Positions 8,622 to 26,150 of a DNA stretch of 64,000 bases are shown one piece after another. Source of the stretch: Streptococcus oralis subsp. tigurinus. Lineage in GTDB: Bacteria; Bacillota; Bacilli; Lactobacillales; Streptococcaceae. The stretch lies in assembly GCF_002356415.1 (NCBI RefSeq), contig NZ_AP018338.1, positions 744,001-808,000 of the forward strand, in the 5' to 3' direction. The position numbers and the translations under genes are program-made. The stretch's first letter is position 1; every line of letters begins with the position of its first letter. The notes beneath the pieces were generated by a model, which had not been told where the DNA came from, did no database searches, and saw only the letters and a program-made list of their open reading frames with translations.

Positions 8622-8987
8622 ATGGAAAATCGTTACCGAACTAAGCTAAAGAAAGTTTTCCTATCTGATAGCGAATTGAGTCAGTTGAAACATTGCATCG
8701 ATCAAAGCGGTTGTAAATCTTTTTCAGAATATGCTCGACGAACCCTACTTGACCCTGGTATGAATTTCATCACCATTGATACAACTGGTTATCAAGATTT
8801 GATATTTGAGTTGAAGAGGATTGGTAATAACATCAACCAGATTGCCCGAAGTGTTAATCAATCTCAGTTGATTTCAAGTGAAGAATTGCAAGACTTGAAA
8901 AAGGGAATCGCTGACTTGATAAGTGAGGTAGAGAAAGAGTTTAGTGTTCAAGCAAAAAAGTTGAGGGAGTTTTATGGTCATCACTAA
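8622..8987 (+). CDS. mobC: MobC-family mobilization protein
   Basis: 121 residues. An N-terminal RHH-like part (KKVFLSDSELSQLKHCIDQSGCKSFSEYARRTLL) is followed by the MobC hallmark LKRIGNNINQIARSVNQ at residues ~63-82. MobC proteins help the relaxase open oriT. The gene overlaps the relaxase start by 14 bases, so the two are coupled. Confidence 0.85.
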   Translation: MENRYRTKLKKVFLSDSELSQLKHCIDQSGCKSFSEYARRTLLDPGMNFITIDTTGYQDLIFELKRIGNNINQIARSVNQSQLISSEELQDLKKGIADLISEVEKEFSVQAKKLREFYGHH

Positions 8988-10911: not shown

Positions 10912-11778
10912 GTGGGCACACTATTAGCAACCAGATTAAAAAATAGACGAAAAGAATTAAAAATGTCTCAGCGAGAATTGGCCGAGGGGATATGTAAACA
11001 GGGACAGATTAGTCGATTAGAGAATGGAGAATTTACTCCAGGAGCAGACTTTTTATATGCTCTGTCTAAGAAGTTAAAAGTTAGTATAGATTATTTTTTT
11101 AATGAGCAAATTGTAGAAGAGATTGATGAGCTATCAGAGTTTAAGAAGTTAGCCCAGACATTTATCACAAATCGAAATTATGAGTCTTTGAAGTATATAT
11201 ATGAATTAGAGAGTGTAAAGGTACATCGCTTGTCTCTAGTAAATAAATTTTATATGGAGTGGATAAAATCTCTTATAGATTTTTATTTCTATGGGCAAAA
11301 AGAGGAAGCTGTGGCAAGATTGGAGAAGGTACTGTCTCAGTTAAATGTAACTGACCTGTTCTACCTTCAAGTTTCAAATACTCTATTTAATTTTTATTAT
11401 GATATTGAAGATTTAGAGAGCTTTAATGAAATTCGAGAAAAGTTGGAGTGTCAAGTAAATCAACTCAAGTTAAACACAATCGAAGAATTAAACCTTTCTA
11501 TTAAATTTAATTATAATGTTTGTCGCTATCTATGGTTGCAGAATAATACTGAAGAGGCTATTACTAAAATCACAGATACGATAAAGCAATGTAAGACGTA
11601 TAGAACAACATATCTTTTGGCTGATTTGTATGTATTGATGGGAAATGTCAGTAAGAATTTTTCTTCTAAAGTTGCAGTAAAAGAGTACTTTGAAACGGCT
11701 TATTTCCTATATAAGCTTGAGGGCAATATGTCAATGGCTCTTAAAATCGAGCATTATATTGCAGATATAACAGAATAG
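10912..11778 (+). CDS. TprA/PlcR-type peptide-responsive regulator (RRNPP family)
   Basis: 288 residues, the typical TprA/PlcR length. An XRE helix-turn-helix lies at residues ~8-62 (MSQRELAEGICKQGQISRLENGEF), followed by helical TPR-like repeats. In this family the repeats bind a short re-imported signalling peptide that switches the regulator. The start is GTG at 10912, with AAAAGG about 11 bases upstream. It lies between the relaxase and the cargo cluster, the position of the PlcR-type gene in pneumococcal pathogenicity island 1. It is the obvious candidate to control the biosynthetic genes downstream. Confidence 0.85.
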   Translation: MGTLLATRLKNRRKELKMSQRELAEGICKQGQISRLENGEFTPGADFLYALSKKLKVSIDYFFNEQIVEEIDELSEFKKLAQTFITNRNYESLKYIYELESVKVHRLSLVNKFYMEWIKSLIDFYFYGQKEEAVARLEKVLSQLNVTDLFYLQVSNTLFNFYYDIEDLESFNEIREKLECQVNQLKLNTIEELNLSIKFNYNVCRYLWLQNNTEEAITKITDTIKQCKTYRTTYLLADLYVLMGNVSKNFSSKVAVKEYFETAYFLYKLEGNMSMALKIEHYIADITE

Positions 11779-11785
11779 CGTAGTT

Positions 11786-11881
11786 ATAGTTTTAATTCTG
11801 TTAGGGATTGTATCGAAACCCCAATCTCATATAAAGGCAACAGAAATTGATCCTGGTCCTGCAAACGGTGTTTCTAGATAA
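11786..11881 (+). other. Possible signalling-peptide precursor frame without a standard start codon
   Basis: An open frame overlapping the regulator's end encodes a hydrophobic stretch (VVIVLILLGIVS) followed by a polar tail ending EIDPGPANGVSR. That is the look of a Phr/PapR-type pro-peptide, and peptide genes commonly sit right after their regulator. No ATG, GTG or TTG lies in frame before the hydrophobic part (only ATA at 11786 or ATT at 11795), and no ribosome binding site is visible. A decent promoter motif overlaps the same bases. It may be a decayed peptide gene or chance. Confidence 0.25.
11808..11835 (+). promoter_or_regulatory. Candidate promoter of the cargo cluster
   Basis: TTGTAT, a 16-bp spacer and TATAAA, with the same -35 hexamer as the regulator's own promoter. 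GATTG (11806-11810) and CAATC (11822-11826) form a small dyad around it. It would give a leader of about 95 bases before the short frame at 11937. Confidence 0.4.
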
Positions 11882-11936: not shown

Positions 11937-12095
11937 ATGTTTGAATTCTATATCCTGGCAGATGTATTGAAGGGAGTAAAATATAGTTTAAAAAGTTGTT
12001 TAAATCATCATTATATTTGTAAGGAGAGTCTTACCTGTACAGGTAAGTATTTAGTTATAACTAAATACTTACTAATCATATATGCAATTGTTTAA
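11937..12095 (+). CDS. Short open frame (52 aa) in the cluster leader
   Basis: ATG at 11937, with in-frame TTG codons at 11931 and 11934. AAGAGGA at 11918-11924 suits the TTG at 11931 best. The product is small and basic with a hydrophobic C-terminus (KYLLIIYAIV) and three Cys plus several Ser/Thr in the middle (SLKSCLNHHYICKESLTCTG). The palindromes at 12030-12072 lie inside its 3' half, so it could be an attenuator leader peptide rather than a functional peptide. No lanthipeptide enzymes are nearby. Confidence 0.35.
   Translation: MFEFYILADVLKGVKYSLKSCLNHHYICKESLTCTGKYLVITKYLLIIYAIV
12019..12072. promoter_or_regulatory. Alternating GTAAG/CTTAC segments forming overlapping palindromes
   Basis: GTAAG (12019-12023), CTTAC (12030-12034), GTAAG (12043-12047) and CTTAC (12068-12072) alternate. 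Segments 2-3 bound a perfect 18-bp palindrome (CTTACCTGTACAGGTAAG, 12030-12047). Segments 3-4 bound a perfect 30-bp palindrome (12043-12072). The stems share segments and so exclude one another. This could be an operator array for the upstream regulator or an RNA attenuator. No long T-run follows directly. Confidence 0.6.
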
Positions 12096-12114
12096 TTATT
12101 AAAGGATTTTTACT

Positions 12115-13172
12115 ATGCAAGAGGTCATTATTACAAATAAAAAATTAGATTATTTATTAAAATAAGTGAATGTAAGAATCTAATTTTATACTCTAAAACT
12201 GGAAATATAAATTACTTTAAGTTAGATGATAGAATCAGGCGAGATTTATCTAATTTAGATTTAGAGATTTTATATGCAGATACTAGAGATTATGATATTG
12301 CATATGCATTATCACAATGTATAGGTGCAAAATTTTTAAAAATTAAAACAGAAGCCTTGTTAAATAGGAATAAACAGTACATATTTATCAGTGAGTATGC
12401 AATGTCAAAAGAATTAGATAGTCTGATTATGAGATTATCAATATATAATATTACATACTTAGTTTCTCATGATTTAGAGGCACTATCTGTTTTAATTACG
12501 AAATTTTTGTATCCATATAAAATTGAGGGTAATGCGAATATAATATTAAATATGCTTGATTCTTCAATTAAAGAAATCTCTAGAGAAAATTTTTAGATTG
12601 TAAATCGTAAAGGGAATGTATATGAAAAATTATGTAATTTAAAAGAAATTAACTATTTATCCGCAATCGTTCATGGTAATGGTAATTTATTATATTTAGG
12701 TCAAGAAAAATTAGTGTCAGAAGCAATAGCAATTAATAGTAATGATACGATATTAGTTGATTTTTTAGACTCTAAAAAAAATAAAGTGATTTTCTTAGCT
12801 TCTTGTTTTGGAACTGTACTATCAGGAAAATCATATGTAGATGATTTAATCAAATCAAATGTTGATACTATTATTACATATAGAGGACTAAAAGAAAATG
12901 GATTCGCAGAGTGTTCGTGGTTTATTTTATTGAACTATTTTGGTTTTCAATATGATGAAATAGTTAGAATAATCAATAAAAAATCAGAAAAAAGAACAGT
13001 AGATGCTCCTAGGTATAGTTTGATTGGCTCTAGCGAGAATGCGTTAACGTTTTCTCCATATTGTGAGTATAGATTTGAAGATAATCATATATTGTGTCAT
13101 ACAGAAAATGAAAATCAATTTTACTTTGGTAAATGTAAACTGCCTTTAAATAAAAACGGAAAGGAAGTCTAA
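12115..13172 (+). pseudogene. Broken gene for a caspase/CHAT-like cysteine peptidase-type protein
   Basis: Translation starts well (AAAGGA 8 bases before ATG 12115) but the frame closes after 16 codons. The neighbouring frame then runs from about 12163 to 13172, interrupted only by an in-frame TAG at 12594-12596. Loss of one base near 12140-12165 plus one nonsense change explains this; the original protein was about 350 residues. Its second half has a His in a hydrophobic strand (SAIVHGNGNLLYLG) and, about 45 residues on, a Cys (VIFLASCFGTVLSG). That is the His/Cys pattern of clan CD peptidases (caspase, CHAT, gingipain). The assignment is by motif only. Confidence 0.6.
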
Positions 13173-13174
13173 GA

Positions 13175-13277
13175 ATGAAGAAATTTAGAAACTTTTCACG
13201 ATTTTGATTTTGTTGATGGATATTATCATTATTGTTGGTGGCTAAGATACTTAGGAATAATATATAACAGTGTGTAA
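13175..13277 (+). pseudogene. Frameshifted small gene or peptide remnant
   Basis: ATG at 13175 has a good site (AAGGAAG, 13161-13167) but stops after 10 codons. One extra T in TTTT (13193-13196) would join it to a frame ending at 13277. The joined product would be about 33 residues with an aromatic core (VDGYYHYCWWLRYLG). It could be a ruined peptide or precursor gene or the remains of a larger gene. The remainder to 13328 holds only the ribosome binding site of the next gene. Confidence 0.35.
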
Positions 13278-13328
13278 CAAATATTTTTAATTAGTAGTAT
13301 CTTATTTAAAAAAGTGGGGAGGAATATT

Positions 13329-14231
13329 ATGTATTCTGCATTACTTGGTAATCCAGTGGAACATTCTATATCGGATGAATTATTTGAATATCTAAATAAT
13401 ATTATAGGAGGTTTAGACGACTATAAACATAAGAAAATTTTAGTGAACTCAGTGTGTTTAGAAGAAAAAATTAAAAATCTAATAAATGATCCACAATGCA
13501 TTGGATTAAACATAACTTTACCCTATAAAAGAGAAACAATGAAATATATTGATACTTTAGATAAAGTAGCTGAGGTAACCGGTTCTGTTAACAATATTTA
13601 CAAAACTGGAGATATTATTATAGGAACTAATACTGATTGGAAAGGTATTTATGATACATTAGATTTTTTCAATGTTAACCATTTAAAAAAATGTTGTATT
13701 TGGGGTACTGGAGGTACTTCAAGGGCGGCTATTTTTGCTTTACGAAAACTACAAATCTCACCAGTCATTGTATATAGAGAGCCAATTAGTGAAAATACAT
13801 GGAGTTTAATGGAAAGTTTTTCTGATCTAAAGTTTATTACATATCAGGAATTGGTCAATCAACAACTTTTAAATGATATAGAGATCATAATAAATACTAC
13901 ACCAGTTGGAATGGTAAATTATGAAGATGATTTACCTATAAATCTTAAGCAGTTAGATAGTATTAATTATGAAGATAAATACTTTATGGATGTAGTTTTC
14001 AATCCTTTACACACTAAGCTTCATAAATATTTTAGTAGTAAAGGAGTAAAAATAATAGACGGTTTATGGGTTTTACTTTTTCAAGGGATCGAGGCATTTT
14101 CATTGTGGTGCGATAAAATCAATGATAGTAAGTATTTTTTACTAAAAGATGATATAGTACGGATACATAAATTTTTGGAAAGGAAGATACAAGAAACAGA
14201 TGGTTTTTCATATAACAGTAAATCTCGATGA
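13329..14231 (+). CDS. Shikimate/quinate dehydrogenase-like oxidoreductase (AroE family)
   Basis: 300 residues from ATG 13329, chosen because GGGGAGG (13316-13322) precedes it. Family motifs are clear: substrate-site GNPVEHSIS (8-16), catalytic Lys67 in NITLPYK, Asp103 in NTDWKG, the nucleotide-binding loop GTGGTSRA (126-133) and NTTPVGM. AroE enzymes interconvert 3-dehydroshikimate and shikimate, or quinate and aminoshikimate relatives. The core genome should already carry aroE, so this copy is probably specialised. It overlaps the next gene by 32 bases. It heads the intact part of the biosynthetic cluster. Confidence 0.85.
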   Translation: MYSALLGNPVEHSISDELFEYLNNIIGGLDDYKHKKILVNSVCLEEKIKNLINDPQCIGLNITLPYKRETMKYIDTLDKVAEVTGSVNNIYKTGDIIIGTNTDWKGIYDTLDFFNVNHLKKCCIWGTGGTSRAAIFALRKLQISPVIVYREPISENTWSLMESFSDLKFITYQELVNQQLLNDIEIIINTTPVGMVNYEDDLPINLKQLDSINYEDKYFMDVVFNPLHTKLHKYFSSKGVKIIDGLWVLLFQGIEAFSLWCDKINDSKYFLLKDDIVRIHKFLERKIQETDGFSYNSKSR

Positions 14232-15036
14232 AATATCAGATAGCTTAGATACTTCGTTGAAATTTTTAAATAATCTATCAATTAAAAGTTGTGAATTAAG
14301 AATGATAAATAATAAAAATATTATAAAACTTAGTGACGAAGAGTTAATCAATTTAAAAGAAAAATTGCAAAAGTATAATATAACCCCGGTTTCCATTGCG
14401 AGTCCACTTTTTAAATGGAATGTAAAAGGAGAGAATTTAGAAAGTAATCTTGATTTATATGGTATGTCGACTAGTGTTACATTAAATGAACAATGGCTCT
14501 ATATAAGAAAAATTATTTTTATAGCTAGATTCCTAAATATTAAATATATAAGAATATTTGGTGGAATTGGGTGTTCAGTAGATGATTTCTTGTGCAATGA
14601 ACTATTTTTGAGTATGTTAAATGAGACTGATATTATTTTTTTAATTGAGAATGAGTTAGGGACTGCTGTGAGCACTGCAGACGACTTGATAAAAATAGGG
14701 CATTTTATAGATGAAAAATCGATAAAAAATTTAAAAATTTGGTTTGATATAGCTAATTATTATAGAATTGATCCCAAAGTAGGCCAGCTTATTCAAAAAT
14801 TGAAAAATTATATCTATTATATTCATTGTAAGAATTATATTATTAATGATTCAGGAATATATTATGTAGAATTAGGAAAAGGAATTATCAACTTCAAAAC
14901 TCTCATTCATGAAATCCGTGAACATTTTATAAATTTAATTTTTAGTTTAGAAGTACATGAAAAAGAACTGGATAAAAAGGCAGAAGTAGTGAGAAAATCC
15001 TATTTAACCCTAAGTGAGTATATTGATGGAGATTAA
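14200..15036 (+). CDS. TIM-barrel sugar isomerase / dehydratase-like protein (AP endonuclease 2 superfamily)
   Basis: 278 residues. The xylose-isomerase-like fold shows a full set of candidate metal ligands: Glu150 (LIENELG), Asp183 (WFDIANYY), His209 (YIHCKNY) and Glu251 (LEVHE). Members include sugar epimerases, inosose dehydratase and 3-dehydroshikimate dehydratase (AsbF type). Paired with an AroE-like enzyme, dehydration of 3-dehydroshikimate to protocatechuate is a plausible reaction, but the fold alone cannot prove it. GGAAAGG lies upstream. The next gene starts one base after its stop. Confidence 0.78.
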   Translation: MVFHITVNLDEISDSLDTSLKFLNNLSIKSCELRMINNKNIIKLSDEELINLKEKLQKYNITPVSIASPLFKWNVKGENLESNLDLYGMSTSVTLNEQWLYIRKIIFIARFLNIKYIRIFGGIGCSVDDFLCNELFLSMLNETDIIFLIENELGTAVSTADDLIKIGHFIDEKSIKNLKIWFDIANYYRIDPKVGQLIQKLKNYIYYIHCKNYIINDSGIYYVELGKGIINFKTLIHEIREHFINLIFSLEVHEKELDKKAEVVRKSYLTLSEYIDGD

Positions 15037-15037
15037 A

Positions 15038-15781
15038 ATGAATTTAAGTATAGTTGGTTTAAAGAATATTCCTTATTTGAAAGAAGGTGAAAATTTAGAA
15101 AAGTTTATTGCAGAGAGTATTAAAGATTCAGATTTTTCTATTGAGGACAATAACGTACTTTGCATAGCTTCTAAAATTGTGTCTATTTCAGAAAATCAAG
15201 TTTTGTCTTTGAAACAGGTTCAAGTGAGTGATGAAGCTAAAGAAATTCAGAAGAGCATCCCTCGTAAAGATCCTAGAATAATTGAAATTATGCTCAACTT
15301 AGTTGATAGAGACCTGTCACGTTTAGATATAAAAAAAAATTACATTGGATGTAGATTGGAAAATGGTTTAAAGTTGACAAGTGGTGGAATCGATAAAAAA
15401 TCAGTTGATGAAGTATTTCTCTTGCCTAAAAATCCAGATGCTTCTGCAAAAAGAATCTCAGAATATCTTAAACTGTCACTTGGTAAGAACGTGGCAGTTG
15501 TTATAACTGATAGTGATGGTAGGGAGGATAAAAGAGGAGCTACTCAAGTAGCAATTGGCATTTATGGTATTCCTCCATTGAGGAAAACAGCAGTAATAGA
15601 TTCTAATGGAGAGACAATAAAATTCCAAGAAGAAACTTTATGTGACATGATTGCAGCTAGTGCTGGTTTAGTAATGGGGCAACGTGGAACAGGAATTCCT
15701 GCTGTTATTATCAAAGGCATAGAATATGAGTGGTCTGAAACGACAAATATTAAGGATGCAATTAATGAGAGTTCCAATTGA
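15038..15781 (+). CDS. CofE-like ATP/GTP-dependent amide ligase (F420-0:glutamate ligase family)
   Basis: 247 residues from ATG 15038 (GGAG at 15028-15031), the size of archaeal CofE. Conserved blocks are LTSGGIDKKSV (113-123), LLPKNPDASA (128-137), VVITDSDGRED..G (154-167), AIGIYGIPPL (172-181) and LVMGQRGTGIPAVII (211-225). CofE adds glutamate to F420-0 by amide bond formation. No other F420 gene is visible here and streptococci are not known to make F420, so this enzyme probably ligates an amino acid onto the cluster's own intermediate. The D-x-R-G element after GIPPL is altered (LRKTAV), in line with another substrate. Confidence 0.85.
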   Translation: MNLSIVGLKNIPYLKEGENLEKFIAESIKDSDFSIEDNNVLCIASKIVSISENQVLSLKQVQVSDEAKEIQKSIPRKDPRIIEIMLNLVDRDLSRLDIKKNYIGCRLENGLKLTSGGIDKKSVDEVFLLPKNPDASAKRISEYLKLSLGKNVAVVITDSDGREDKRGATQVAIGIYGIPPLRKTAVIDSNGETIKFQEETLCDMIAASAGLVMGQRGTGIPAVIIKGIEYEWSETTNIKDAINESSN

Positions 15782-16751
15782 GAGTAAAAATATTTTAATG
15801 GTTGGATTTGGTAAAATTGGGAAAATAAAAGCTTATAAATGGATGGGCAGAGGCTACAATGTATATGTAAAAGATATAAAATTTTGTAATTTAATATTAC
15901 TTAACAAAGGAATCAGTGTAGATGATGATTTATCGAGACAATATTTTACCATTGAAATTTGTACTCCGACTAACCAACATGTAGTAGTATTGAAGAATAT
16001 TCTAAAAAAATATTTATTTTCATATGTTAGTATAGAGAAACCACTTTGTAATACATTTAAAGATCTAGAGGAAATTACTTCAATCATAAAAAAGCAACCA
16101 GATTTAGAAAAAAATATTTTTGTGAGTGAACAATATTTTTATTCTACAATTTTAGATATTTTCTCAAATCATGGATGTTTTTCTTTGAGTGGAACAGAAA
16201 AAATACAGATTGAATTTTCTAAAAATAGAATCTCGGATAATGAAAATGGAAGATTTTTAGATGAGGAGATATTAGGTTACGGAATCGAACTTCCGCATAT
16301 ATTAGCGATTTTAAGATATTTAGGAATATCATCAGATGAATTTGTTAATGGTGTTTTTGTAGATAATCTTTATATAAAAGATTTAAGAAACCATGATTAT
16401 TCGATAGAAATTTTATCTAGAATTAGAAATATATCGATAGAAATTAACAGTAATTTAGGGAGTTTTTCGATAAAAGATGGAAAGCAGATGAATCGGAAAA
16501 ATGGAACAGTAAGAACTGCTAGAATTGATGACTCAATTCTGATTTTTGATCCACATCCTAAGATTGAAAGATATAGAAGTGAGTTAATTAATGGTGATAA
16601 TAAAATTCAAATTTCTGATGATATGATAGATAAACAATTAACATTATTAGAAGAGAATAGGATACCAAGAGGGTGTGATATTATTAGTGCTATTGAAATA
16701 ACAAAAGTGTTACTTAAATTATATTTAGAATGCAATAAAATTTATGTATAG
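15765..16751 (+). CDS. Gfo/Idh/MocA-family oxidoreductase
   Basis: 328 residues from ATG 15765, supported by AAGGA at 15752-15756; it overlaps the CofE-like gene by 17 bases. It has the Rossmann motif GFGKIG (14-19), the ICTPTNQH block (~65-72) and the family's EKP motif (91-93), followed by the substrate domain. These enzymes oxidise or reduce sugars, cyclitols and related rings with NAD(P). In this cluster it could act on a nucleotide sugar (UDP-sugar dehydrogenase downstream) or on a ring made by the AroE-like/TIM-barrel pair. The substrate is unknown. Confidence 0.8.
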   Translation: MRVPIESKNILMVGFGKIGKIKAYKWMGRGYNVYVKDIKFCNLILLNKGISVDDDLSRQYFTIEICTPTNQHVVVLKNILKKYLFSYVSIEKPLCNTFKDLEEITSIIKKQPDLEKNIFVSEQYFYSTILDIFSNHGCFSLSGTEKIQIEFSKNRISDNENGRFLDEEILGYGIELPHILAILRYLGISSDEFVNGVFVDNLYIKDLRNHDYSIEILSRIRNISIEINSNLGSFSIKDGKQMNRKNGTVRTARIDDSILIFDPHPKIERYRSELINGDNKIQISDDMIDKQLTLLEENRIPRGCDIISAIEITKVLLKLYLECNKIYV

Positions 16752-16762
16752 AGGTATAAATT

Positions 16763-17962
16763 ATGGAATTAAAAATTACTAATGATTTTTATAGTCCAAG
16801 TCAATTAGCATATGAGGTTGTAGAACGTAAAGGATTAGGTCATCCTGATACCTTAGCTGATGGGATAGCAGAGCAAATTGAAATTGATTATTCTCAGTAC
16901 TGTTTGAATAGATTTGGCATTATTCCACATCATAATTTTGATAAAATCATTATAAGAGGTGGACATTCCATTCAGAATTTTGGTGGTAGTGACTTTATTG
17001 AACCAATTAAAATTATTTTTTTAGGTAGGGCGAGCAAAAAATGTTTTGATATTCCAATTCCACTTTTTAAAATTCAAAAAAAAGCTGCAACTAAATATTT
17101 AAATAGAATTCTCCCCAACTTAGATGTTGAAAATTACGTAGAATTCGAAACATTGACTTCAGATTTTACTACAAAATCTAATTGGTTCTCCCCTACTACA
17201 ATAGAAGACTTACCAGAGTATAAAGATGTACCAAAGGCAAATGATACAGCTACAATGATAAGTTATTGGCCCTTAACAATTTCGGAAGAATTAGCCTTAA
17301 TGATTGAAGGGTATTTTTATAAACTAGATATCAATAAATTGCCAACGCCACGATTTATTCAAATGGGTGGAGATATTAAAGTGATGGTTGTAAGGAACGA
17401 TTTACATTATTCTATTAGAATAAATTTTCCCTTAATAAGTAAATTTTTTAACAACGAGATTGAAAGTAGGCTATATGTTGATAAACATGTAGAAAAAATT
17501 AAGGAGTATGTTGAACAAAAGTATAAAAAGCTAAACTATTCTATTGATTATAATTACTATTTAACTTCTACAGGTTCTTGTATTGATTTTGGAGAAGAAG
17601 GTGCCGTTGGTCGAGGGAATAAAACTCATGGTATCATATCAAGCTTTAGACCAAATACTATGGAAGCACCAGCAGGTAAAAATTGTACTTATTTTGTAGG
17701 GAAAGTTTGGGGATTTTTATCTGATATTATTGCTAAAGATATTTATGAAACGTTTAAGACTCCATGCCAAGTAATTATGCAGTCAAATATTGGTTCAGAA
17801 CTGTATAAACCAACCCATTTATATATTCAAACAGAAGAAAGTATTGATCAAACAAGGGTATTGGAAATTATTAATAGGCATTTATGTAAAGGTTCAAAAA
17901 ATACGAATCTAATTTTATCAACTCAACATTTTATTCCTAAAACCAATGTTTATAATGGATAA
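16763..17962 (+). CDS. Archaeal-type S-adenosylmethionine synthetase
   Basis: 399 residues, the length of archaeal MAT (about 400). The signature ERKGLGHPDT is at 21-30, then DGIAE, a GGHS-type block (~66-70), and near the C-terminus GAVGRGNKTHG and EAPAGKNCTYFVGKVWG. This family differs from bacterial MetK, which the core genome should carry. It is therefore likely dedicated to the pathway, supplying SAM or adenosylating another sulfur substrate. No methyltransferase or radical-SAM gene lies in the cluster, so SAM may be consumed as a building block. It overlaps the next gene by 17 bases. Confidence 0.9.
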   Translation: MELKITNDFYSPSQLAYEVVERKGLGHPDTLADGIAEQIEIDYSQYCLNRFGIIPHHNFDKIIIRGGHSIQNFGGSDFIEPIKIIFLGRASKKCFDIPIPLFKIQKKAATKYLNRILPNLDVENYVEFETLTSDFTTKSNWFSPTTIEDLPEYKDVPKANDTATMISYWPLTISEELALMIEGYFYKLDINKLPTPRFIQMGGDIKVMVVRNDLHYSIRINFPLISKFFNNEIESRLYVDKHVEKIKEYVEQKYKKLNYSIDYNYYLTSTGSCIDFGEEGAVGRGNKTHGIISSFRPNTMEAPAGKNCTYFVGKVWGFLSDIIAKDIYETFKTPCQVIMQSNIGSELYKPTHLYIQTEESIDQTRVLEIINRHLCKGSKNTNLILSTQHFIPKTNVYNG

Positions 17963-18923
17963 GACAATTTTATATTTTGGGTTTGTCGGAATTTCTTTTG
18001 ATGTACCTCACTTTATATTTCAAAATATAAAAGAGCAGGATAATAAAATAAGATGTTCTAGCGAAACAATAAAGATTTTAGGTAGTGTAAAATTTATTGA
18101 GAGTAATCAACAATATATAAAATATAATGGCAATGGAAGTATTTTAGTTTATGGTAGATTAGATTATTTTAAAGAAGGTATTTCACTATATTACATTGGA
18201 GAGTATTTAGCTGAGTGTCTTTTGATTGAGCAGGATAATACATTATTAATTCATGCAGCGTCAGTTTATAATCCTATAACGGATCATTCAATTTTACTCT
18301 TAGGGGATAAAGGTGCTGGAAAAACTACTGTCGCACTCAGACTTTGTATAGAACATGGATACCACCTTATAGGTAATGATCAAGTAATATTTGGCTTAGA
18401 TTCTGGAATATTAGTAACTTGTGCAGGAACCTCATTCTTTAAAATTAGAAGAACAGCTGTTTTGTCAGATAAATTACTATTTAGACTGTTTAGTAAATAT
18501 TTTAATCATCCATCACACTTCAATCAGGCAAGCTGGGATGATAAAATTTCAATTGACCCAGGAGAGTTAGGGATACGTACTTGTAATTTTTCTGTTGAAA
18601 TTTCAGAAATTTATTACATAAAAGCAGACAAACAAGAAAAACAAATATGTCAATCAATTTGGAATGATAGTTTAGCCAGCTTATTTCTAAATGAAATATT
18701 GGGAAGACATATATCTGGACAAGTTGCATGTTTTCAATCAGATAAAGGAAAGTATTTTTCTGCTATGCCTTTAATAAATTATGAAAAAAATAATAGAGTA
18801 CGTGAACAAATAGTAAAGAAAATTTTCACTAATAATAAATTATATAAAATTATTGCAGATTCTCCTGATAAATTAGCAAAAAAGATTTTAGAAAATGCTA
18901 GTGAAAACTCATATTACGAATGA
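17946..18923 (+). CDS. HPr-kinase/PEPCK-like P-loop kinase
   Basis: 325 residues. The C-terminal two thirds resemble the HPr kinase fold: HAASV (103-107), Walker A GDKGAGKT (120-127) and GNDQ (143-146). Stand-alone relatives are frequent in natural-product and RiPP clusters, where some phosphorylate a Ser or hydroxyl of the product. Chromosomal HprK is shorter and differently organised. ATG 17946 lies within the MAT gene and has no clear ribosome binding site; ATG 17955 is an alternative. A phosphorylation step, perhaps protective, is inferred. Confidence 0.75.
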   Translation: MFIMDKTILYFGFVGISFDVPHFIFQNIKEQDNKIRCSSETIKILGSVKFIESNQQYIKYNGNGSILVYGRLDYFKEGISLYYIGEYLAECLLIEQDNTLLIHAASVYNPITDHSILLLGDKGAGKTTVALRLCIEHGYHLIGNDQVIFGLDSGILVTCAGTSFFKIRRTAVLSDKLLFRLFSKYFNHPSHFNQASWDDKISIDPGELGIRTCNFSVEISEIYYIKADKQEKQICQSIWNDSLASLFLNEILGRHISGQVACFQSDKGKYFSAMPLINYEKNNRVREQIVKKIFTNNKLYKIIADSPDKLAKKILENASENSYYE

Positions 18924-18965
18924 ATTGGGAATTGATGTGAATATATTGAAAAAGGAGTGGTAAAT

Positions 18966-19973
18966 ATGTTTGTGATAGGCATTCCAACCTTAAATGAGGC
19001 AGATAATATCAGTAGATTGGTTAAACAAATCGATGAGTATGCTGTAAATTTAGGGAAGGAAATTATTATTATTAATTCAGATAGTAATAGTACAGATGGA
19101 ACACCTCAGATTTTTTTAGAAACAAAAACTTATAATACCAAAATTTCGATAGTATCAAAGCTAAAGGGAAAAGGTTATAACGTGAGAAATATTTTTGAAT
19201 ATACGATAAATAATTTTTCAAGTTTTTCAGGTTTGATTTTGATTGACGGGGACGTTGTCTCATTGGAAAAAATATGGCTAGAAAAAATGTTTATGTCAAT
19301 TGAATCTGGTTATGATCTTATAATCCCAAATTATGCTAGAAAATTTTTTGAAGGAAATGCGACGAATCATTTTATTTATCCTATGTTAGTGAAAATTTTT
19401 AAAAGTGACGTACCTTATCAATGTATTTCTGGCGATTTTGGTTTTTCAAAGGAACTGGTAAAAGAGTTAACTTTGAAGTGTAATTGGCACAAGTATTCAA
19501 AAGGTTACGGAATAGATATCTTTTTAACCTTAACTGCGATGTTAAAGTCATACAAAATTAAGGAAATTGATTTACAATCAAAGATTCATAAAAAAAGCTT
19601 TGGGAAAATTGAAAAAATTTTTTTAGAAGTTTCTCAAAGTTTTTTCGAGACTATCAAAGATGATTTTTCAAATAAAGACAGATGGATTTTAAATATAGAT
19701 TTTGAGAATCATTTAAGACGGTTTATTCATTCAAATGATATCCCTTCCAACGATGATATTGAGAACTTAAAGAAAAAGGCGTTATTTTTATTACAAGAAG
19801 AGAACAAGTATTCATATGGACTGTTAGATGTAGAGTGGGACAGAATATTGTCTAATGCGGTTAAAAATATTTACAATTATAGTAGTGAAGAACATTCAGT
19901 ACATTTATTACCATTTTATTTGTTGAGGATATACAATTATCTAAAGTATAGTAAACTTAAAGACTCTAATTAA
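18966..19973 (+). CDS. Family 2 glycosyltransferase
   Basis: 335 residues from ATG 18966 (AAGGAG at 18951-18956; an upstream GTG at 18957 is too close). The GT-A fold is clear: IPTLNEADNI (6-15), INSDSNSTDGT (36-46) and the metal-binding DGD at 94-96. No membrane segments are present, so it acts in the cytoplasm on a soluble acceptor. It resembles the enzymes that glycosylate glycerate or other small acids more than polysaccharide synthases. The UDP-sugar dehydrogenase downstream may supply its donor. Confidence 0.8.
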   Translation: MFVIGIPTLNEADNISRLVKQIDEYAVNLGKEIIIINSDSNSTDGTPQIFLETKTYNTKISIVSKLKGKGYNVRNIFEYTINNFSSFSGLILIDGDVVSLEKIWLEKMFMSIESGYDLIIPNYARKFFEGNATNHFIYPMLVKIFKSDVPYQCISGDFGFSKELVKELTLKCNWHKYSKGYGIDIFLTLTAMLKSYKIKEIDLQSKIHKKSFGKIEKIFLEVSQSFFETIKDDFSNKDRWILNIDFENHLRRFIHSNDIPSNDDIENLKKKALFLLQEENKYSYGLLDVEWDRILSNAVKNIYNYSSEEHSVHLLPFYLLRIYNYLKYSKLKDSN

Positions 19974-19994
19974 ATATAGAGAGAGGATGATTTA

Positions 19995-20093
19995 TTGAAT
20001 ATTTTAACATATTTAGTTAATATAAATAGTGGATTCAATAGGTTGGTTTGCTTGTTTGCATTAATAGTTTATTGTTGTTACTTTGAACTATAA
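19995..20093 (+). CDS. Possible small hydrophobic peptide
   Basis: A TTG start at 19995 with GAGAGG 8 bases upstream opens a 32-residue frame whose C-terminal half is hydrophobic (LVCLFALIVYCCYFEL). It lies 21 bases after the glycosyltransferase stop in the only sizeable gap of the operon. It could be a small membrane peptide or chance. The rest of 20094-20281 holds the inverted repeat below and the NRPS ribosome binding site. Confidence 0.25.
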   Translation: MNILTYLVNINSGFNRLVCLFALIVYCCYFEL

Positions 20094-20138
20094 CGATACA
20101 TCTATTATAGATTGTGAATCATTATCTGAGTCAGTTTT

Positions 20139-20197
20139 CTTACTGAGGTACAAAAATATTCAATTTTTGAACAATTCTTTTAATAATACTCAGTAAG
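20139..20197. promoter_or_regulatory. Inverted repeat upstream of the NRPS gene
   Basis: CTTACTGAG (20139-20147) and CTCAGTAAG (20189-20197) form a perfect 9-bp dyad, with a nested CAAAAAT/ATTTTTG pair inside. There is no T-run, so it is more likely an RNA structure or regulator site than a terminator. The half-site begins with the same CTTAC as the leader palindromes. Confidence 0.4.
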
Positions 20198-20281
20198 GTT
20201 AACGTCAGTATGAATTTTGATATTGATATTAAAAGGTAGGAATAGAAAATATGAATCTATTTTTTTAGAAAGGAGAATAGT

Positions 20282-23266
20282 ATGATTGAGATGTTAATGG
20301 ATATGTTGGGGACAATTAGAGAAACAGATCCGAGTAGAACTGCTATAAAAGATAATACAAGAGTACTTTCATATTGTGAAGTGGATACAATAACTAATAT
20401 AGTAGCTAATCAAATAGTTCGCAAAATAGGGGTGAACCAACGTGTTGCTGTTATCTTACCACATGGGATTAATCAAATATTAGCTATGATTGCAATATTA
20501 AAATCGAATAACTGTTATGTTCCGATAGATTACTCTTTAAATGGAGATAAAATTAAAAAAATTTATTCATCCACCCAAGCTGTGATGTACATATCTGATA
20601 AAAATATTCCGTATGTTTCAAAAACGAATTTTTTGGATGTTTCAGAATTTATTACAAAGAAATCAGATGAGAAATTGCCGATAGAAAATCCTTTTATATA
20701 CCTTAGAGAACGAGAAGCTTATATTTTGCACACATCTGGATCAACGGGTGAACCAAAAGGTGTAATAGTGTCGATAGCCAATTTAGATTATATCATAAGG
20801 AACTTGAATACTATAACACCTGCCGTCGAAGAATCTAGATATTTATTTTCAACACCATATAGTTTTGATGTATCGATCACAGAAATGTTAGGTTGGATAG
20901 TGAGCGGCAGTAGCGTATACTGTCTAGATTTGAGTGTTCCCTCGAATTATAAATGTTTAGCAGAAATTATTTTTAAAAATAAAATAACGCATCTAGCCTT
21001 TTCTCCTGCAGCATTTTTAGCATTTATAGAGAGATTAGAACAACCGATATTGCAAAAATTAGATTCTACCATTAAGTATGTTGTTATTGCTGGTGAAAAA
21101 TTTAATTTATCAATTTATAGACTTTGGAAAAGAAATAAGCTAAATTTTAAATTGATTAATGCGTATGGGCCTACAGAGACTACAATATATGCGACAGCGC
21201 ATATTATTACGAAAGACGAGACGGAAGATATACCCATAGGTGTTCCATTAGAGGGTGTAAAATATATCATTAAAAGCAACGGAACCCACAATTATGGTGA
21301 ACTTTATATTGGCGGGAAGGGAGTATCAAAAGGGTATACTAACACAAGTCTAAATAATGAAAGATTTCCAGTAATTGATGGGGATAGATATTATTCTACT
21401 GGTGATATTGTTTACTATAAAAATGGAAGTCTTTACTATGTTGGAAGAAAAGATAATCAAATTCAGAGAAATGGAATTCGTATAGAGTTAGGGGAAATTG
21501 AAAAAGGTATTGAGAGCAATAGTAAAGTAATTCAAGTTTTAGTATTACAGATTGAAAAGCAAATAGTCGCTTTTTATACAGGATATATCAGTCCTCAAAA
21601 TCTTAAAAGGTTCTGTTTAAAAAATATTTCAAAATATATGATACCCAATTCCTTTATTAAGGTTGAACAGTTTCCTATGACTGTTAATAGAAAAATAGAT
21701 AAAACTTTTTTAAAAGAAATATTTAAAGAGAGAAATCAAAATAATTTGGTAAGTGCAGCTGATTATAATAATCTAAGTGATGATGAAGTACAGATTTTAA
21801 AACTAGTATCTAAGAAATTAAATATTTCTATTACTAAGTTGGATATTTCAAAAGATTTTTTTGAAAATGGAGGAGATTCACTTTCTTTATTTACATTTAT
21901 ATTAGATCTTGAAGATTACTATGGAGTTTCAATACCCATGGATGATATTTATGGGAAAAAACTCTATGATTTGATTCGAGAACTTAAGGGCAATATAAAA
22001 AGAAAATTACATGTAGAAAAAACTGATAACTTGCTGGACATGAGAAATGAAGATTTTTATTCAAAGACTGAAATAAAATTTTTATATGACAGTTATTTAA
22101 GAAATACCAATAAAGTGATTTCCAAATTTCAGGCTATACATTGCCAAAGAATTTACTATTATGATAACTATAGAAATATTTTAACTTCAACCTTTGAATA
22201 TAAAAATTGTAGTATTGAAAAAATTAAATCAGTTGTCCAACAAGTGATTGCTTCAAATAGTTTATTGCACTCAAAAATCTCTGTAGATGAAAAACGAATG
22301 GACTTTGAAATTGTAAAACCTAATTTGGATATACCAGTATTAAAAGTATCAAACCAGTCTGAACTAACTTATTTGGAAGATTTACTTGAAGATGTTGGGG
22401 AAGATATGATTCCTACATCACGTAATCAAGGCGGACAATTAGCGATGCCAATTATTATTAGCAACGGATTGAATGGGAAAATTATTATTCAAATGGACCA
22501 TTCTATATCCGATTTATCCAGTATCAGTATTATAAAAAAGCAAATTGGTAGACTAGTTAGTGGTATCGAAGATACATTAACAAATGATGAAAATTATAAA
22601 TATTATTGTGAGAAAATAAGAGAAATAAACAAAAAAGATTCATTGGAAAAAAATCAATATCATCATTTATTATTGAAAGAATCTAAAAAAATTAAACACC
22701 ATACGAAATTTCTTTCAGACACTTTGAATTCTTTATCGATCATCCACGCACCAGATTATTCGAATATTGATAGTATTTTATATATTTCATTTAAAATTTC
22801 AAAAAAACTTTGTAAAGCATCCGGGAATAGTACTTTAATAATATCTACAATCTTTAATAACAGAGATTTAAAGGCTCTTAATCTACAAAATACAATTGGG
22901 GATTGTCATAGTTCTAAATATTTGATTTATAGAGAAGAAGATACCTTTGAGGAATATAAAAAAAGGAATTTCCCCCTTTTCATCAGTGAAGATGATAATG
23001 TAATCTACTATAGACCTGGGTTCATTTTTAATGAATTTTATCCAAATGTGTCAAACTGGCGACAAGAGATCAAGAAAAAACTTGCTAGTATTTCTTTGGT
23101 TTCTTTAAACTTTATAGGTATTATTAGTGAGCAGAAAAAGAAGCAATATTTAGATTCTTTTTCTGATATATCTGAATTCTTAGGTAAACACCCTAGAATT
23201 TATATAACTTCATTCAGGTATAAAAATCAATTTTATATCTTATCTAACAAAAAAATTGATTTATAA
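20282..23266 (+). CDS. Stand-alone NRPS, adenylation-thiolation-condensation
   Basis: 994 residues. Adenylation domain ~1-490: LHTSGSTGEPKG (149-160), FDVSIT (195-200), NAYGPTET (293-300), YSTGD (371-375), the GRKDNQIQRNG region (388-398) and NRKIDK (469-474). Asp196 at the amino-group position argues for an alpha-amino acid substrate. Carrier domain ~500-570 with phosphopantetheine Ser533 (GGDSLS). Condensation-like domain ~595-990 with DHSISD (739-744), where catalytic His740 and Asp744 are kept but the first His and final Gly of HHxxxDG are not. A-T-C order fits loading one amino acid and joining it to a free small acceptor. AAAGGAG precedes ATG. No thioesterase or epimerase is present. 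Confidence 0.9.
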   Translation: MIEMLMDMLGTIRETDPSRTAIKDNTRVLSYCEVDTITNIVANQIVRKIGVNQRVAVILPHGINQILAMIAILKSNNCYVPIDYSLNGDKIKKIYSSTQAVMYISDKNIPYVSKTNFLDVSEFITKKSDEKLPIENPFIYLREREAYILHTSGSTGEPKGVIVSIANLDYIIRNLNTITPAVEESRYLFSTPYSFDVSITEMLGWIVSGSSVYCLDLSVPSNYKCLAEIIFKNKITHLAFSPAAFLAFIERLEQPILQKLDSTIKYVVIAGEKFNLSIYRLWKRNKLNFKLINAYGPTETTIYATAHIITKDETEDIPIGVPLEGVKYIIKSNGTHNYGELYIGGKGVSKGYTNTSLNNERFPVIDGDRYYSTGDIVYYKNGSLYYVGRKDNQIQRNGIRIELGEIEKGIESNSKVIQVLVLQIEKQIVAFYTGYISPQNLKRFCLKNISKYMIPNSFIKVEQFPMTVNRKIDKTFLKEIFKERNQNNLVSAADYNNLSDDEVQILKLVSKKLNISITKLDISKDFFENGGDSLSLFTFILDLEDYYGVSIPMDDIYGKKLYDLIRELKGNIKRKLHVEKTDNLLDMRNEDFYSKTEIKFLYDSYLRNTNKVISKFQAIHCQRIYYYDNYRNILTSTFEYKNCSIEKIKSVVQQVIASNSLLHSKISVDEKRMDFEIVKPNLDIPVLKVSNQSELTYLEDLLEDVGEDMIPTSRNQGGQLAMPIIISNGLNGKIIIQMDHSISDLSSISIIKKQIGRLVSGIEDTLTNDENYKYYCEKIREINKKDSLEKNQYHHLLLKESKKIKHHTKFLSDTLNSLSIIHAPDYSNIDSILYISFKISKKLCKASGNSTLIISTIFNNRDLKALNLQNTIGDCHSSKYLIYREEDTFEEYKKRNFPLFISEDDNVIYYRPGFIFNEFYPNVSNWRQEIKKKLASISLVSLNFIGIISEQKKKQYLDSFSDISEFLGKHPRIYITSFRYKNQFYILSNKKIDL

Positions 23267-23289
23267 AAAGCTTTATAATAGAGGGTAAT

Positions 23290-24447
23290 ATGAAAATCAC
23301 AGTCGTAGGTGTTGGATATGTTGGGTTATCAATAGGGGTACTACTTGCAAGAGAACATGTAGTTACTTTTTTTGATATTGACAATAAAAAAGTTGATTTA
23401 ATAAATAAAAGGCAATCTCCTCTAAAAGAGAATGCTATAAAGAAATTTTTGCATGAGGCAAAAAATATTAATGCAACTACATCTGAAGAATTGGCTTATA
23501 AGGATGCAACTTTTATAATATTGGCATTGCCAACCAATCTGAAAATGAATAAGCTTGATACTTCCTATGTCGAAATTACAATAGATAATATTTTAAAGAT
23601 AAATAAAAAGGCTACAATTGTTGTAAAGTCAACAGTTCCAATAGGTTTTACCAAATATTTAAGAAATCGTTTTAACTATAATGATATAATTTTTTCTCCT
23701 GAGTTCCTTCGGGAAGGTTATACTATTCATGATCAATTGTATCCTTCGAGGATTATTGTTGGTAATGAATCTAAAAATTCTCAATTATTTTTAGACATAA
23801 TGATGAAAATAGCAGTTGAAGAAAACTTGCCAACTTTATTAATTGGGTCTTCTGAAGCAGAAGCGATAAAGCTATTTTCGAATGCATACTTAGCACAAAA
23901 AATTGCTTTTTTTAATGAGTTGGATACATTTGCTGAGATGCAGAATTTAGACTCTAAAAAAATTATTGAGGGGATGGGGTACGATTGGAGAATAGGAAAT
24001 TCGTATAATAATCCTTCATTCGGTTTTGGTGGTTACTGTCTTCCTAAAGATGTTAAGCAATTAGAGTATCATTTTAAAGATATTTCTGCGCCAATTATTA
24101 CAAGTATAAACAAGTCTAATTTATTTAGAAAAGTTCATATAGCAAAAATGATTTTAAATAGCTCAGCTAAAACCATAGGAATTTATAGAATTAATTCAAA
24201 AAAAGAGTCAGATAATTGCAGAGAATCTTCTACAATTGATGTTGTTAGACATATAAAAAGAAGTGGCAGAGATGTTGTAATATTTGAGCCTTTAATTAAA
24301 GACAAAATGTTTTTGGATTGCCCTATAATTAATGATTTTAATGAGTTTAGTGCTCATTCTGATATTATAGTTGCTAATAGAATAGATGACATTCTGATGA
24401 AATATAACTCAAAAGTTTTTACACGAGATATTTTTCAATATGATTAA
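23290..24447 (+). CDS. UDP-glucose/GDP-mannose dehydrogenase family enzyme
   Basis: 385 residues, typical for UDP-glucose 6-dehydrogenases. The Rossmann motif VGVGYVGLS lies at 6-14, followed by STVPIGFT (114-121), the SPEFLREG loop (136-143) and catalytic Cys250 in FGFGGYCLPKD. It should oxidise C6 of a nucleotide sugar to a uronic acid using two NAD+. It starts 23 bases after the NRPS stop (GAGGGT ribosome binding site). In this setting it probably makes a UDP-uronic acid for the glycosyltransferase or for a sugar part of the product. It closely resembles capsule-type Ugd enzymes, so the substrate assignment is fairly safe. Confidence 0.88.
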   Translation: MKITVVGVGYVGLSIGVLLAREHVVTFFDIDNKKVDLINKRQSPLKENAIKKFLHEAKNINATTSEELAYKDATFIILALPTNLKMNKLDTSYVEITIDNILKINKKATIVVKSTVPIGFTKYLRNRFNYNDIIFSPEFLREGYTIHDQLYPSRIIVGNESKNSQLFLDIMMKIAVEENLPTLLIGSSEAEAIKLFSNAYLAQKIAFFNELDTFAEMQNLDSKKIIEGMGYDWRIGNSYNNPSFGFGGYCLPKDVKQLEYHFKDISAPIITSINKSNLFRKVHIAKMILNSSAKTIGIYRINSKKESDNCRESSTIDVVRHIKRSGRDVVIFEPLIKDKMFLDCPIINDFNEFSAHSDIIVANRIDDILMKYNSKVFTRDIFQYD

Positions 24448-24535
24448 CAAAAAGATTGATATTTGAACAAAGTATTTTTTATTTAATAATTTCAGTTAAT
24501 AGTTGTCGTACCCGAGAATTTTAAAGGTCTATAAA

Positions 24536-25744
24536 ATGAATAATATGAAAAAAAATATTCTATACTTGGTGTATAGTAAAGGTATATCTCGAATAGGAGA
24601 TGTTATGTTTGACTATGCTAATAACAGATTTCTTGCAGGGATCAATCCAACGTCACTATCGTTGGTTGCTATCTATCAATCATTAGAAAGTGTGATAGGA
24701 GTTCTATTTAATTTATTCGGTGGAGTCATTGCAGATAGCTTCAATCGGAAAAAAATTATTATTGCTACAAACATCTTATGTGGTCTTTCTTGCATAACTC
24801 TTTCATTTATATCCCAAGAACAATGGTTGGTTTATGCGATAGTCATAACAAATGTCATTTTGGCTTTTATGAGTGCTTTTTCAGGGCCATCATACAAAGC
24901 TTTTACGAAAGAAATTGTAAAAAAGGACAGTATATCACAACTTAATTCATTGTTAGAAACAACAAGTACTGTGATTAAAGTAACAATTCCTATGATTGCA
25001 ATTTTCTTATATAAGTTACTTGGAATACATGGTGTGTTATTATTAGATGGATTATCGTTTTTAATTGCTACCTCACTAATTTTCTTCATTACTCCTGTAA
25101 ATGAGGAGGTGGAGACAAAAGAGAATATGACGATAAGAGGAATCTTTGATGATTTAAAAATAGGATTTACGTATGTATATAGTCATAAACAAATTCTTAT
25201 TATAATTGCCCTTTCAGCACTTGTTAACTTTTTTCTAGCAGCCTATAATTTGTTGCTGCCATACAGTAATCAAATGTTTGGAAGTATTTCAAGTGGGCTA
25301 TATGGAACCTTTTTAACAGCCGAAGCGATTGGTGGCTTTATTGGTGCGATATTAAGTGGATTTATCAATAAATCCTTGTCAAGCAAACGTTTAATGCTCT
25401 TTTTAGCATATTCAGGTTTGATGTTAATGCTAGTAGCGCCGCTCTATTATATGTTCCGCAACGTCATTATTTTAGCCTTTTCTCCAGCATTATTTAGTCT
25501 ATTTCTTTCCATTTTTAATATCCAATTTTTCTCTATTGTTCAAAGAGACGTAGATAATGAGTTTCTTGGCAGAGTATTTGGAATCATCTTTACGGTAGCT
25601 ATTCTTTTTATGCCACTAGGTACTGTTTTTTTCTCAGTAGTTTTAAATCCTAACAATACTTTTAATCTTTTTATTATTGGTGTATCTATTACGATATTAT
25701 CGCTAATATTCAGCACGCTATTGAAGAGGTATGATAGAAATTGA
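24536..25744 (+). CDS. MFS exporter (MFS_3 / Mef-like)
   Basis: 402 residues from ATG 24536 (AAAGG 8 bases upstream; an upstream TTG lacks a site). About 12 hydrophobic segments are present, with the loop motif GGVIADSFNRKKIIIATN between helices 2 and 3 typical of Mef/EntS-type drug and siderophore exporters. It is the last intact gene of the cluster and the likely route for product export and self-resistance. An ATG-led fragment of 20 codons follows its stop and then degenerates. Confidence 0.85.
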   Translation: MNNMKKNILYLVYSKGISRIGDVMFDYANNRFLAGINPTSLSLVAIYQSLESVIGVLFNLFGGVIADSFNRKKIIIATNILCGLSCITLSFISQEQWLVYAIVITNVILAFMSAFSGPSYKAFTKEIVKKDSISQLNSLLETTSTVIKVTIPMIAIFLYKLLGIHGVLLLDGLSFLIATSLIFFITPVNEEVETKENMTIRGIFDDLKIGFTYVYSHKQILIIIALSALVNFFLAAYNLLLPYSNQMFGSISSGLYGTFLTAEAIGGFIGAILSGFINKSLSSKRLMLFLAYSGLMLMLVAPLYYMFRNVIILAFSPALFSLFLSIFNIQFFSIVQRDVDNEFLGRVFGIIFTVAILFMPLGTVFFSVVLNPNNTFNLFIIGVSITILSLIFSTLLKRYDRN

Positions 25745-26150
25745 TAGATGATAAAAATATCTGATATAGAGAATTTAGAGCGCCTTTGGAATTTAATCAA
25801 TCACAGTTGAATGTGAAGGGCAATCTGTTTTATAAGAATACAATCAAGATATCATTATGCTATTTTTTTAGTTCAGTTAAAATATTGAGAAGTATTACTT
25901 TTATTTAAAAAGCATCATAAAGGACTCCAATTAATTACTAATGATTTTTCTAATTTAATTTTGTGGTTATTGACAAATAAAGTCTAGTTAATTGCTTTGA
26001 AATCCATGGATTGGTTTATATACATCTGTTAATGCAACGGATAATTTTATTGATAAGTAGGGAGTGGCTATTATTCAACTTTTAGGTTCTGAAAGTAAGA
26101 GATTCATCTTAGAAATATCATGTTGAGCATTTTTCAATTTGCTGGTTAGT

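What the first reader, a model, noticed from the sequence alone, without database searches (positions are those of the whole stretch)
11937..25744. Apparently undescribed NRPS-containing biosynthetic cluster carried on a streptococcal mobile element
One strand-consistent, tightly packed run encodes an AroE-like dehydrogenase, a TIM-barrel isomerase/dehydratase, a CofE-like amide ligase, a Gfo/Idh/MocA oxidoreductase, an archaeal-type SAM synthetase, an HPr-kinase-like kinase, a GT2 glycosyltransferase, an A-T-C NRPS, a UDP-sugar dehydrogenase and an MFS exporter. I recognise every family but no known pathway with this combination. The region is clearly more AT-rich than its flanks, as expected of acquired DNA. 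The product would be amino-acid-derived, glycosylated and exported.
Basis: partly seen in the sequence, partly recalled or inferred. Interest (0 to 1): 0.92.

Follow-up and report, generated by a model that had tools for sequence, protein, structure and literature searches.

The report
Mobile qim-type immune-modulation gene cluster
This ten-gene cluster is a jumping, apparently complete version of an operon known from Streptococcus pyogenes that helps it quieten immune cells, here riding on a transferable DNA element in other streptococci, and its relatives in very different microbes hint at what kind of molecule it makes.

Summary
In detail: ten intact, co-directional genes (13329-25744) lie in AT-rich DNA inside a mobile element. 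"Apparently undescribed" does not hold: gene set and order are those of the S. pyogenes qim operon (spy49_0450-0460, qimA-J), needed there for macrophage suppression; its product is only partly known. New here: (1) it is cargo of a 73.6-kb ICESa2603-family element at rplL that also carries tet(M), mef(A) and an msr-family gene; it is 99% identical in two genomes whose chromosomes match this one at only 79-81% (one 4-kb probe), so it spread recently. (2) The NRPS is full-length (994 aa); S. pyogenes qimH is truncated. (3) No Rgg gene stands beside it and the SHP pheromone gene is a relic. (4) A seven-gene core (TIM, Gfo, MAT, kinase-like, GT, CofE, AroE) recurs, whole or in part, on three Streptomyces plasmids and one haloarchaeal plasmid, without NRPS or sugar dehydrogenase. 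(5) The archaeal-type MAT keeps catalytic and methionine-carboxylate residues but has a replaced lid, and no SAM-using enzyme is recognisable in the operon. I suggest an adenosyl-containing, aminoacylated, glycosylated molecule; that chemistry is inferred. Verdict: new variant of a known kind.

The parts
8974..10797 (+). SAG1250-family conjugative relaxase of the ICE
   Evidence: NF040665 936 bits, cut-off 575
10912..11778 (+). HTH regulator with helical C-terminus; not the Rgg C-terminal family
   Evidence: PF01381; no TIGR01716 hit, unlike the regulators beside the S. porcinus and S. pyogenes-like copies
11780..11881 (+). 3' remnant of a 44-aa secreted-peptide-like ORF that is whole in G181 (L019:5415); the 5' part is missing here
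   Evidence: alignment of four copies
12116..13172 (+). relic of a gene of unknown kind, broken in all four near-identical copies; pieces searched apart only
   Evidence: 152-aa piece without Pfam/NCBIfam hit
13176..13244 (+). relic of an SHP pheromone gene; DIIIIVGG end at 13219-13242
   Evidence: DIIIIVGG is SHP3-C8 of S. pyogenes (PMC3150281)
13329..14231 (+). qimA-like: AroE-type dehydrogenase
   Evidence: NF001311 308 bits, cut-off 235; motifs HSIS, NITLPYK, NTD, Q present
14200..15036 (+). qimB-like: TIM-barrel sugar isomerase/epimerase type
   Evidence: PF01261
15014..15781 (+). qimC-like: CofE-type amide ligase
   Evidence: PF01996
15726..16751 (+). qimD-like: Gfo/Idh/MocA-type oxidoreductase (true start probably further in; homologues are 328 aa)
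   Evidence: PF01408 weak
16763..17962 (+). qimE-like: archaeal-type MAT with replaced lid loop
   Evidence: NF003362 680 bits
17946..18923 (+). qimF-like: HprK/PEPCK-like P-loop protein, putative kinase
   Evidence: PF07475 weak; Walker A GxxGxGKT invariant in 11 rows apart from one A/S position
18957..19973 (+). qimG-like: GT2 glycosyltransferase
   Evidence: PF00535
20282..23266 (+). full-length qimH-like NRPS, A-T-C, 994 aa
23290..24447 (+). qimI-like: UDP-glucose 6-dehydrogenase type
24503..25744 (+). qimJ-like: MFS transporter
   Evidence: PF07690
26900..27208 (+). DUF3173 protein beside the integrase
   Evidence: PF11372
27171..28367 (+). tyrosine integrase of the ICE
   Evidence: PF00589
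28419..28433 (+). right att core of the ICE; the left copy is at genome 698800-698814, at the 3' end of rplL
   Evidence: family att sequence in PMC4735348

Best explanation
A mobile qim-type biosynthetic operon, cargo of a 73.6-kb ICESa2603-family element at rplL. Shown: same ten genes and order as S. pyogenes qim; all open; NRPS full-length; recent spread between diverged streptococci; native Rgg/SHP switch gone or decayed. Inferred, by family: QimA, QimB and QimD shape a carbocyclic or sugar unit that bears a carboxylate; QimE transfers the adenosyl group of ATP (to methionine or, more interestingly, to another acceptor with a carboxylate); QimC amidates a carboxylate; QimI makes UDP-glucuronate for QimG; QimH loads an amino acid and its C domain hands it to an acceptor; QimF phosphorylates; QimJ carries the product out, where it acts on neighbours or host cells or ends on the wall.
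For: Table 1 of PMC13059722 names the same ten genes in order. Conserved order in 8 of 335 family genomes including this one. NRPS in one frame over 994 residues in 5 of 8 (own, G217, G263, G181, G213); split in G214 and G224; only residues 886-994 left in G225. Purifying selection. att core exactly twice, relaxase and T4SS genes above cut-offs. DNA 99.1-99.2% identical to G217, G263, G181 against 81%, 79%, 94% for a 4-kb chromosomal probe. Core shared with Streptomyces and Halorussus plasmids.
Against: The chemistry is untested. The weakest assignments (QimD, QimF) rest on weak profile hits. The regulator that names qim is missing, so expression is unknown. In S. pyogenes a truncated qimH still counts as required, so the full NRPS may not be what matters. 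The chromosome comparison is one 4-kb probe. QimE keeps the methionine-carboxylate residues, which fits plain SAM synthesis. In 398 genomes drawn from the class only this one passed the MAT family's cut-off, so the set is rare.
Confidence: 0.8

Rival explanations
1. The operon builds a wall teichoic-acid-like GlcNAc-ribitol modification, as reported for S. pyogenes; AroE, CofE and MAT play side roles.
For: GlcNAc-ribitol in the wall and binding of a ribitol-phosphate-binding phage protein depend on qim in S. pyogenes (PMC13059722, abstract and section 9); action needs contact (PMC8262891).
Against: No ribitol or CDP-ribitol enzyme among the ten genes; the authors say the roles of qimA, qimC and qimE are unclear; qimE is required but has no obvious part in this; RBP-13 binding failed in 3 of 4 other strains tested (two M1, one M89); the core recurs in Streptomyces and a haloarchaeon.
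Confidence: 0.3
2. An adenosyl-containing nucleoside-type small molecule (works like, but is not shown to be, a thuringiensin relative) that acts inside host cells.
For: MAT-type enzyme with replaced lid and no SAM user in the operon; MAT next to TIM and Gfo in 6 of 11 plasmid stretches I opened; suppression in S. pyogenes acts after NF-kB reaches the nucleus (PMC12607563 passages); PMC8262891 calls a B. thuringiensis thuringiensin cluster homologous.
Against: QimE keeps His62, Asn64, Asn161 equivalents that hold methionine's carboxylate; the published thu gene list has no MAT, CofE or AroE (PMC4147579); GT and kinase-like searches of plasmids hit no Bacillus record, though I did not check that a thu plasmid is in that collection; no cytotoxicity seen; Halorussus and NBC_01334 do have a methyltransferase nearby.
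Confidence: 0.25
3. Decaying, silent cargo: signal and regulator are lost and the operon is on its way out.
For: SHP relic, broken gene at 12116-13172, peptide ORF truncated here.
Against: All ten enzymes open, NRPS included, in four near-identical copies; low dN/dS, although that mostly reflects older history.
Confidence: 0.2

Closest known systems
qim operon of Streptococcus pyogenes (spy49_0450-0460)
   Same: Ten genes, same families, same order; the G225 copy, which looks like the S. pyogenes locus (name inferred), is 78-87% identical in protein except QimD at 59%
   Different: Here on an ICE; NRPS full-length; no adjacent Rgg; SHP gene a relic; another HTH regulator upstream
   Same: Same ten families, 60-75% protein identity, in the same order (MFS lies outside the G214 and G224 stretches fetched)
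   Different: Beside Rgg and an SHP-like ORF ending DIIIIAGG, near ribosomal protein genes; in G214 and G224 an integrase lies beside the operon rather than around it
Core clusters on Streptomyces plasmids NBC_01304, NBC_01601, NBC_00708 and Halorussus salilacus plasmid
   Same: TIM, Gfo, MAT and GT in all four; CofE and a kinase-like gene in the three Streptomyces; AroE in NBC_01304, NBC_01601 and Halorussus
   Different: No NRPS, nucleotide-sugar dehydrogenase or adjacent MFS in the block; 20-40% protein identity
Thuringiensin (thu) cluster of Bacillus thuringiensis
   Same: From the published gene list: NRPS with A, ACP, C; UDP-glucose dehydrogenase; glycosyltransferase; a kinase for the last step (PMC4147579 passages)
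   Different: No MAT, CofE or AroE in that list; sequences not compared here
ICESa2603-family ICEs
   Same: 15-bp att at rplL, SAG1250 relaxase, tyrosine integrase, VirB4/VirD4-type genes
   Different: Cargo is a biosynthetic operon; the cargo seen in the passages I read was resistance and nisin genes

Membership tests
qim operon | ten genes AroE-TIM-CofE-Gfo-MAT-HprK/PEPCK-GT-NRPS-UGD-MFS in this order | tested here: met
   against Table 1
qim operon | control by adjacent Rgg and SHP (the quorum regulation in its name) | tested here: not met
   no Rgg beside it, SHP relic only. I therefore call it qim-type, not the qim operon. Rgg genes elsewhere in the genome were not searched
qim operon | macrophage suppression and qim-dependent GlcNAc-ribitol | not testable with these tools
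   reported for S. pyogenes only
ICESa2603-family ICE | 15-bp att TTATTTAAGAGTAAC at the 3' end of rplL | tested here: met
   reverse complement exactly twice in the genome, 698800-698814 and 772419-772433; rplL end read by eye
ICESa2603-family ICE | SAG1250 relaxase and T4SS genes | tested here: met
   NF040665 936 bits; NF045971, NF045973 above cut-offs
ICESa2603-family ICE | backbone of 30 syntenic core genes at 60% or more DNA identity | not tested
   -
Methionine adenosyltransferase (archaeal type) | catalytic His33, Tyr271, Asp201 and Met-carboxylate residues His62, Asn64, Asn161 (TkMAT numbers) | tested here: met
   alignments read by eye against residues named in PMC3853416; Asp201 inferred from the DIKVM motif
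Methionine adenosyltransferase (archaeal type) | lid with Asp144/Leu145 (G-x-GS-x-DL) and Asp283 | tested here: not met
   lid replaced by W-F-x-P-x4-D-L; Asp283 is Glu. Lid pattern in 117 of the 120 best hits (of 900), canonical pattern in 0 of 120; Glu in 109 of 109 with a readable motif. Nearest neighbours only, so the 120 are not independent
Thuringiensin cluster | homologues of ThuF and ThuE | tested here: inconclusive
   no Bacillus record among the GT or kinase-like hits in plasmids; presence of a thu plasmid there unchecked

The most novel reading that the evidence does not exclude
QimE belongs to a family of MAT-fold enzymes in biosynthetic clusters that join the adenosyl group of ATP to a carboxylated cyclitol or sugar instead of methionine, so that qim-type operons in streptococci, Streptomyces and haloarchaea make adenosyl conjugates, which in streptococci are further aminoacylated and glucuronylated and act in the host cell nucleus; a drug-resistance ICE now spreads this trait through commensal streptococci.
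Probability: 0.2. Interest if true: 0.88.

Novelty: new variant of a known kind. Interest (0 to 1): 0.58.

Why it matters
The qim product is an open question for S. pyogenes: the operon is needed for macrophage suppression and full virulence in a skin model, yet three of its enzymes have no place in the proposed wall glycan. A natural copy with an uncut NRPS, plus a stripped-down core in Streptomyces and an archaeon, narrows the chemistry and offers harmless sources for enzymes. That the trait rides on one transferable element with tet(M), mef(A) and an msr-family gene matters for surveillance.

Tried and rejected
Thuringiensin cluster: my first recollection; the published gene list overlaps only in part and plasmid searches with GT and kinase-like proteins found no Bacillus record. 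Plasmid or phage origin: megablast of 13300-25800 in plasmids found nothing; MAT in phages and viral contigs, nothing. CofE hits that were not the cluster: L. amylovorus, Streptomyces MMBL 11-1, NBC_01456. NRPS hit on an Exiguobacterium plasmid: NRPS and MFS but no MAT or CofE annotated. G585 and Parageobacillus: distant MAT beside a myo-inositol-1-phosphate-synthase-like gene, HHN changed to HHW, not the same core. Adenylation code read by eye (GrsA positions recalled) as D-V-T-A-V-A-A-I-Y-K: no amino acid assigned. Structure prediction did not run. Bacillus MAT homologues (50-55%) could not be seen in context.

Paper searches: terms for archaeal-type MAT with nucleoside antibiotics, 1 unrelated paper; thuringiensin with MAT, 0; Streptococcus/NRPS/shikimate dehydrogenase/archaeal SAM synthetase, 1 unrelated; qim or spy49_0450/0460, 9 papers, 8 listed, titles on S. 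pyogenes or streptococcal reviews; ICE with NRPS, S. mitis and BGC, 0. So I found no report of an ICE-borne copy; only these searches of an open-access library were made.
Full report
What is there. Ten open reading frames run from 13329 to 25744 on the + strand. The stretch 11937-13172 is not part of the operon: it is a gene relic with broken frames in all four near-identical copies. GC is about 28% in the operon, 34% to its left and about 41% in the chromosome to its right.

Mobile element. The 15-bp core GTTACTCTTAAATAA occurs exactly twice in the 1.889-Mb genome, at 698800-698814 and 772419-772433, the latter being window 28419-28433. The left copy is the 3' end of rplL (read by eye). This is the att site of the ICESa2603 family (PMC4735348, passages). 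Relaxase (NF040665 936 bits), VirB4- and VirD4-type genes and integrase fit. The 73.6-kb element also carries tet(M) (1513 bits), mef(A) (888), an msr-family ABC-F gene (783) and a Tn916-type module (TcpF-type ATPase 1642), and PezAT. The operon lies between relaxase and integrase.

Distribution. CofE-like hits occur in 8 of 335 family genomes including this one; in all eight the neighbours are the qim-type genes in the same order as far as the fetched stretch shows. Over about 14.5-15 kb the DNA is 99.1-99.2% identical to G181, G217 and G263. A 4-kb chromosomal probe gives 94%, 81% and 79%. The contigs of G217 and G263 carry the names S. pseudopneumoniae 888 and Streptococcus sp. HMSC074B11. 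So the operon moved recently between diverged streptococci. In 398 genomes drawn from the class, the MAT family passed its cut-off only here.

Identity with qim. PMC13059722 (abstract, passages, section 9, part 1 of section 10) lists qimA-J: shikimate dehydrogenase, epimerase, F420 ligase, aldose oxidoreductase, SAM synthase, PEPCK-like, mannosylglycerate-synthase-like GT, truncated NRPS, UDP-glucose dehydrogenase, flippase. That is this operon, gene for gene. In S. pyogenes qimA, B, E, F, G and H are each required for suppression of macrophage NF-kB, qimI in part, qimJ not; qimC and qimD were not tested. A wall GlcNAc-ribitol depends on the operon. A companion paper places the block inside the nucleus (PMC12607563 passages). 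PMC8262891 names S. porcinus, S. pseudoporcinus, Salinispora tropica and B. thuringiensis as holders of similar sets.

What differs. The NRPS is one 994-aa frame in 5 of 8 genomes, split in two, reduced to its last hundred residues in G225. G225 has rgg, an SHP ORF ending DIIIIVGG and the operon next to rnc-smc-like genes (names by eye), which fits the S. pyogenes locus; SHP3-C8 is DIIIIVGG (PMC3150281 passages). In the window DIIIIVGG is still encoded at 13219-13242, but the usual start codon is out of frame in all four near-identical copies; only an ATG directly before these eight codons is in frame. No Rgg gene stands beside it. A different HTH regulator precedes it; in G181 a 44-aa secreted-peptide-like ORF follows that regulator, and its 5' part is missing in the window.

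Core beyond streptococci. tblastn with the GT hit 4 of 72,556 plasmid records: NBC_01304, NBC_01601, NBC_00708 and Halorussus salilacus. All four are among the 27 records with a MAT hit; the three Streptomyces are among the 55 with a CofE hit. Annotation and Pfam show TIM, Gfo and MAT in all four, a kinase-like protein in the three Streptomyces and AroE in three of four. Direct comparison with the window proteins: MAT 32-40%, CofE 37-39%, GT 25-31%, TIM 20-26%, AroE 23-31%, kinase-like weak (E 7e-4 to 5e-6), Gfo significant only for Halorussus. I opened 11 plasmid stretches, chosen for MAT, CofE or NRPS hits; 6 have MAT with TIM and Gfo. Database entries of equal contig length suggest MAT and NRPS together in Macrococcoides bohemicum (37,497) and MAT and kinase-like together in an unnamed contig (39,267).

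The MAT. Residues that TkMAT uses for catalysis and for the methionine carboxylate are kept; the lid with Asp144 and Leu145 is replaced and Asp283 is Glu (PMC3853416 passages). The lid pattern is in 117 of the 120 best hits and in the Streptomyces, Halorussus and Megaera proteins, though NBC_01334, Megaera, Parageobacillus and G585 keep Asp at the 283 position. The host has its own metK. No SAM-using family was found among the ten proteins. This allows, and does not prove, a non-methionine acceptor: kept carboxylate ligands equally fit ordinary SAM synthesis.

Reading. I hold the identity as a mobile qim-type operon to be secure. The product class is open between a wall glycan (published) and an adenosyl-type small molecule (mine, supported by the core's company and by the nuclear site of action). 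Both could be true of different enzymes of the operon, as the S. pyogenes authors allow.

Noticed in passing
genome 708036-714496 (left of the window, same ICE; L050): Intact tet(M), mef(A) and msr-family genes within a Tn916-type module on the same element
   Followed up: partly
3725-4971: PezA/PezT toxin-antitoxin pair, above NCBIfam cut-offs
   Followed up: yes
5912-7327: UmuC/DNA polymerase IV-like gene on the ICE
   Followed up: no
L020:9663-10685: QimD of the S. pyogenes-like copy is only 59% identical to the window's while its neighbours are 78-87%: possible gene exchange
   Followed up: no
L023:6793-6807 and L022: In G224 and G214 an integrase 63% identical to the window's lies directly beside a chromosomal qim-like operon, in G224 with an att core between them: a possible route by which such an element captured the operon
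   Followed up: partly
L024:10549-15801 and L029:9281-11576: Distant archaeal-type MATs next to a myo-inositol-1-phosphate-synthase-like gene, with HHN changed to HHW
   Followed up: partly
L031:9935-16699: Candidatus Megaera plasmid with MAT, xylose-isomerase-like, NUDIX and several oxidoreductase genes in a row
   Followed up: no
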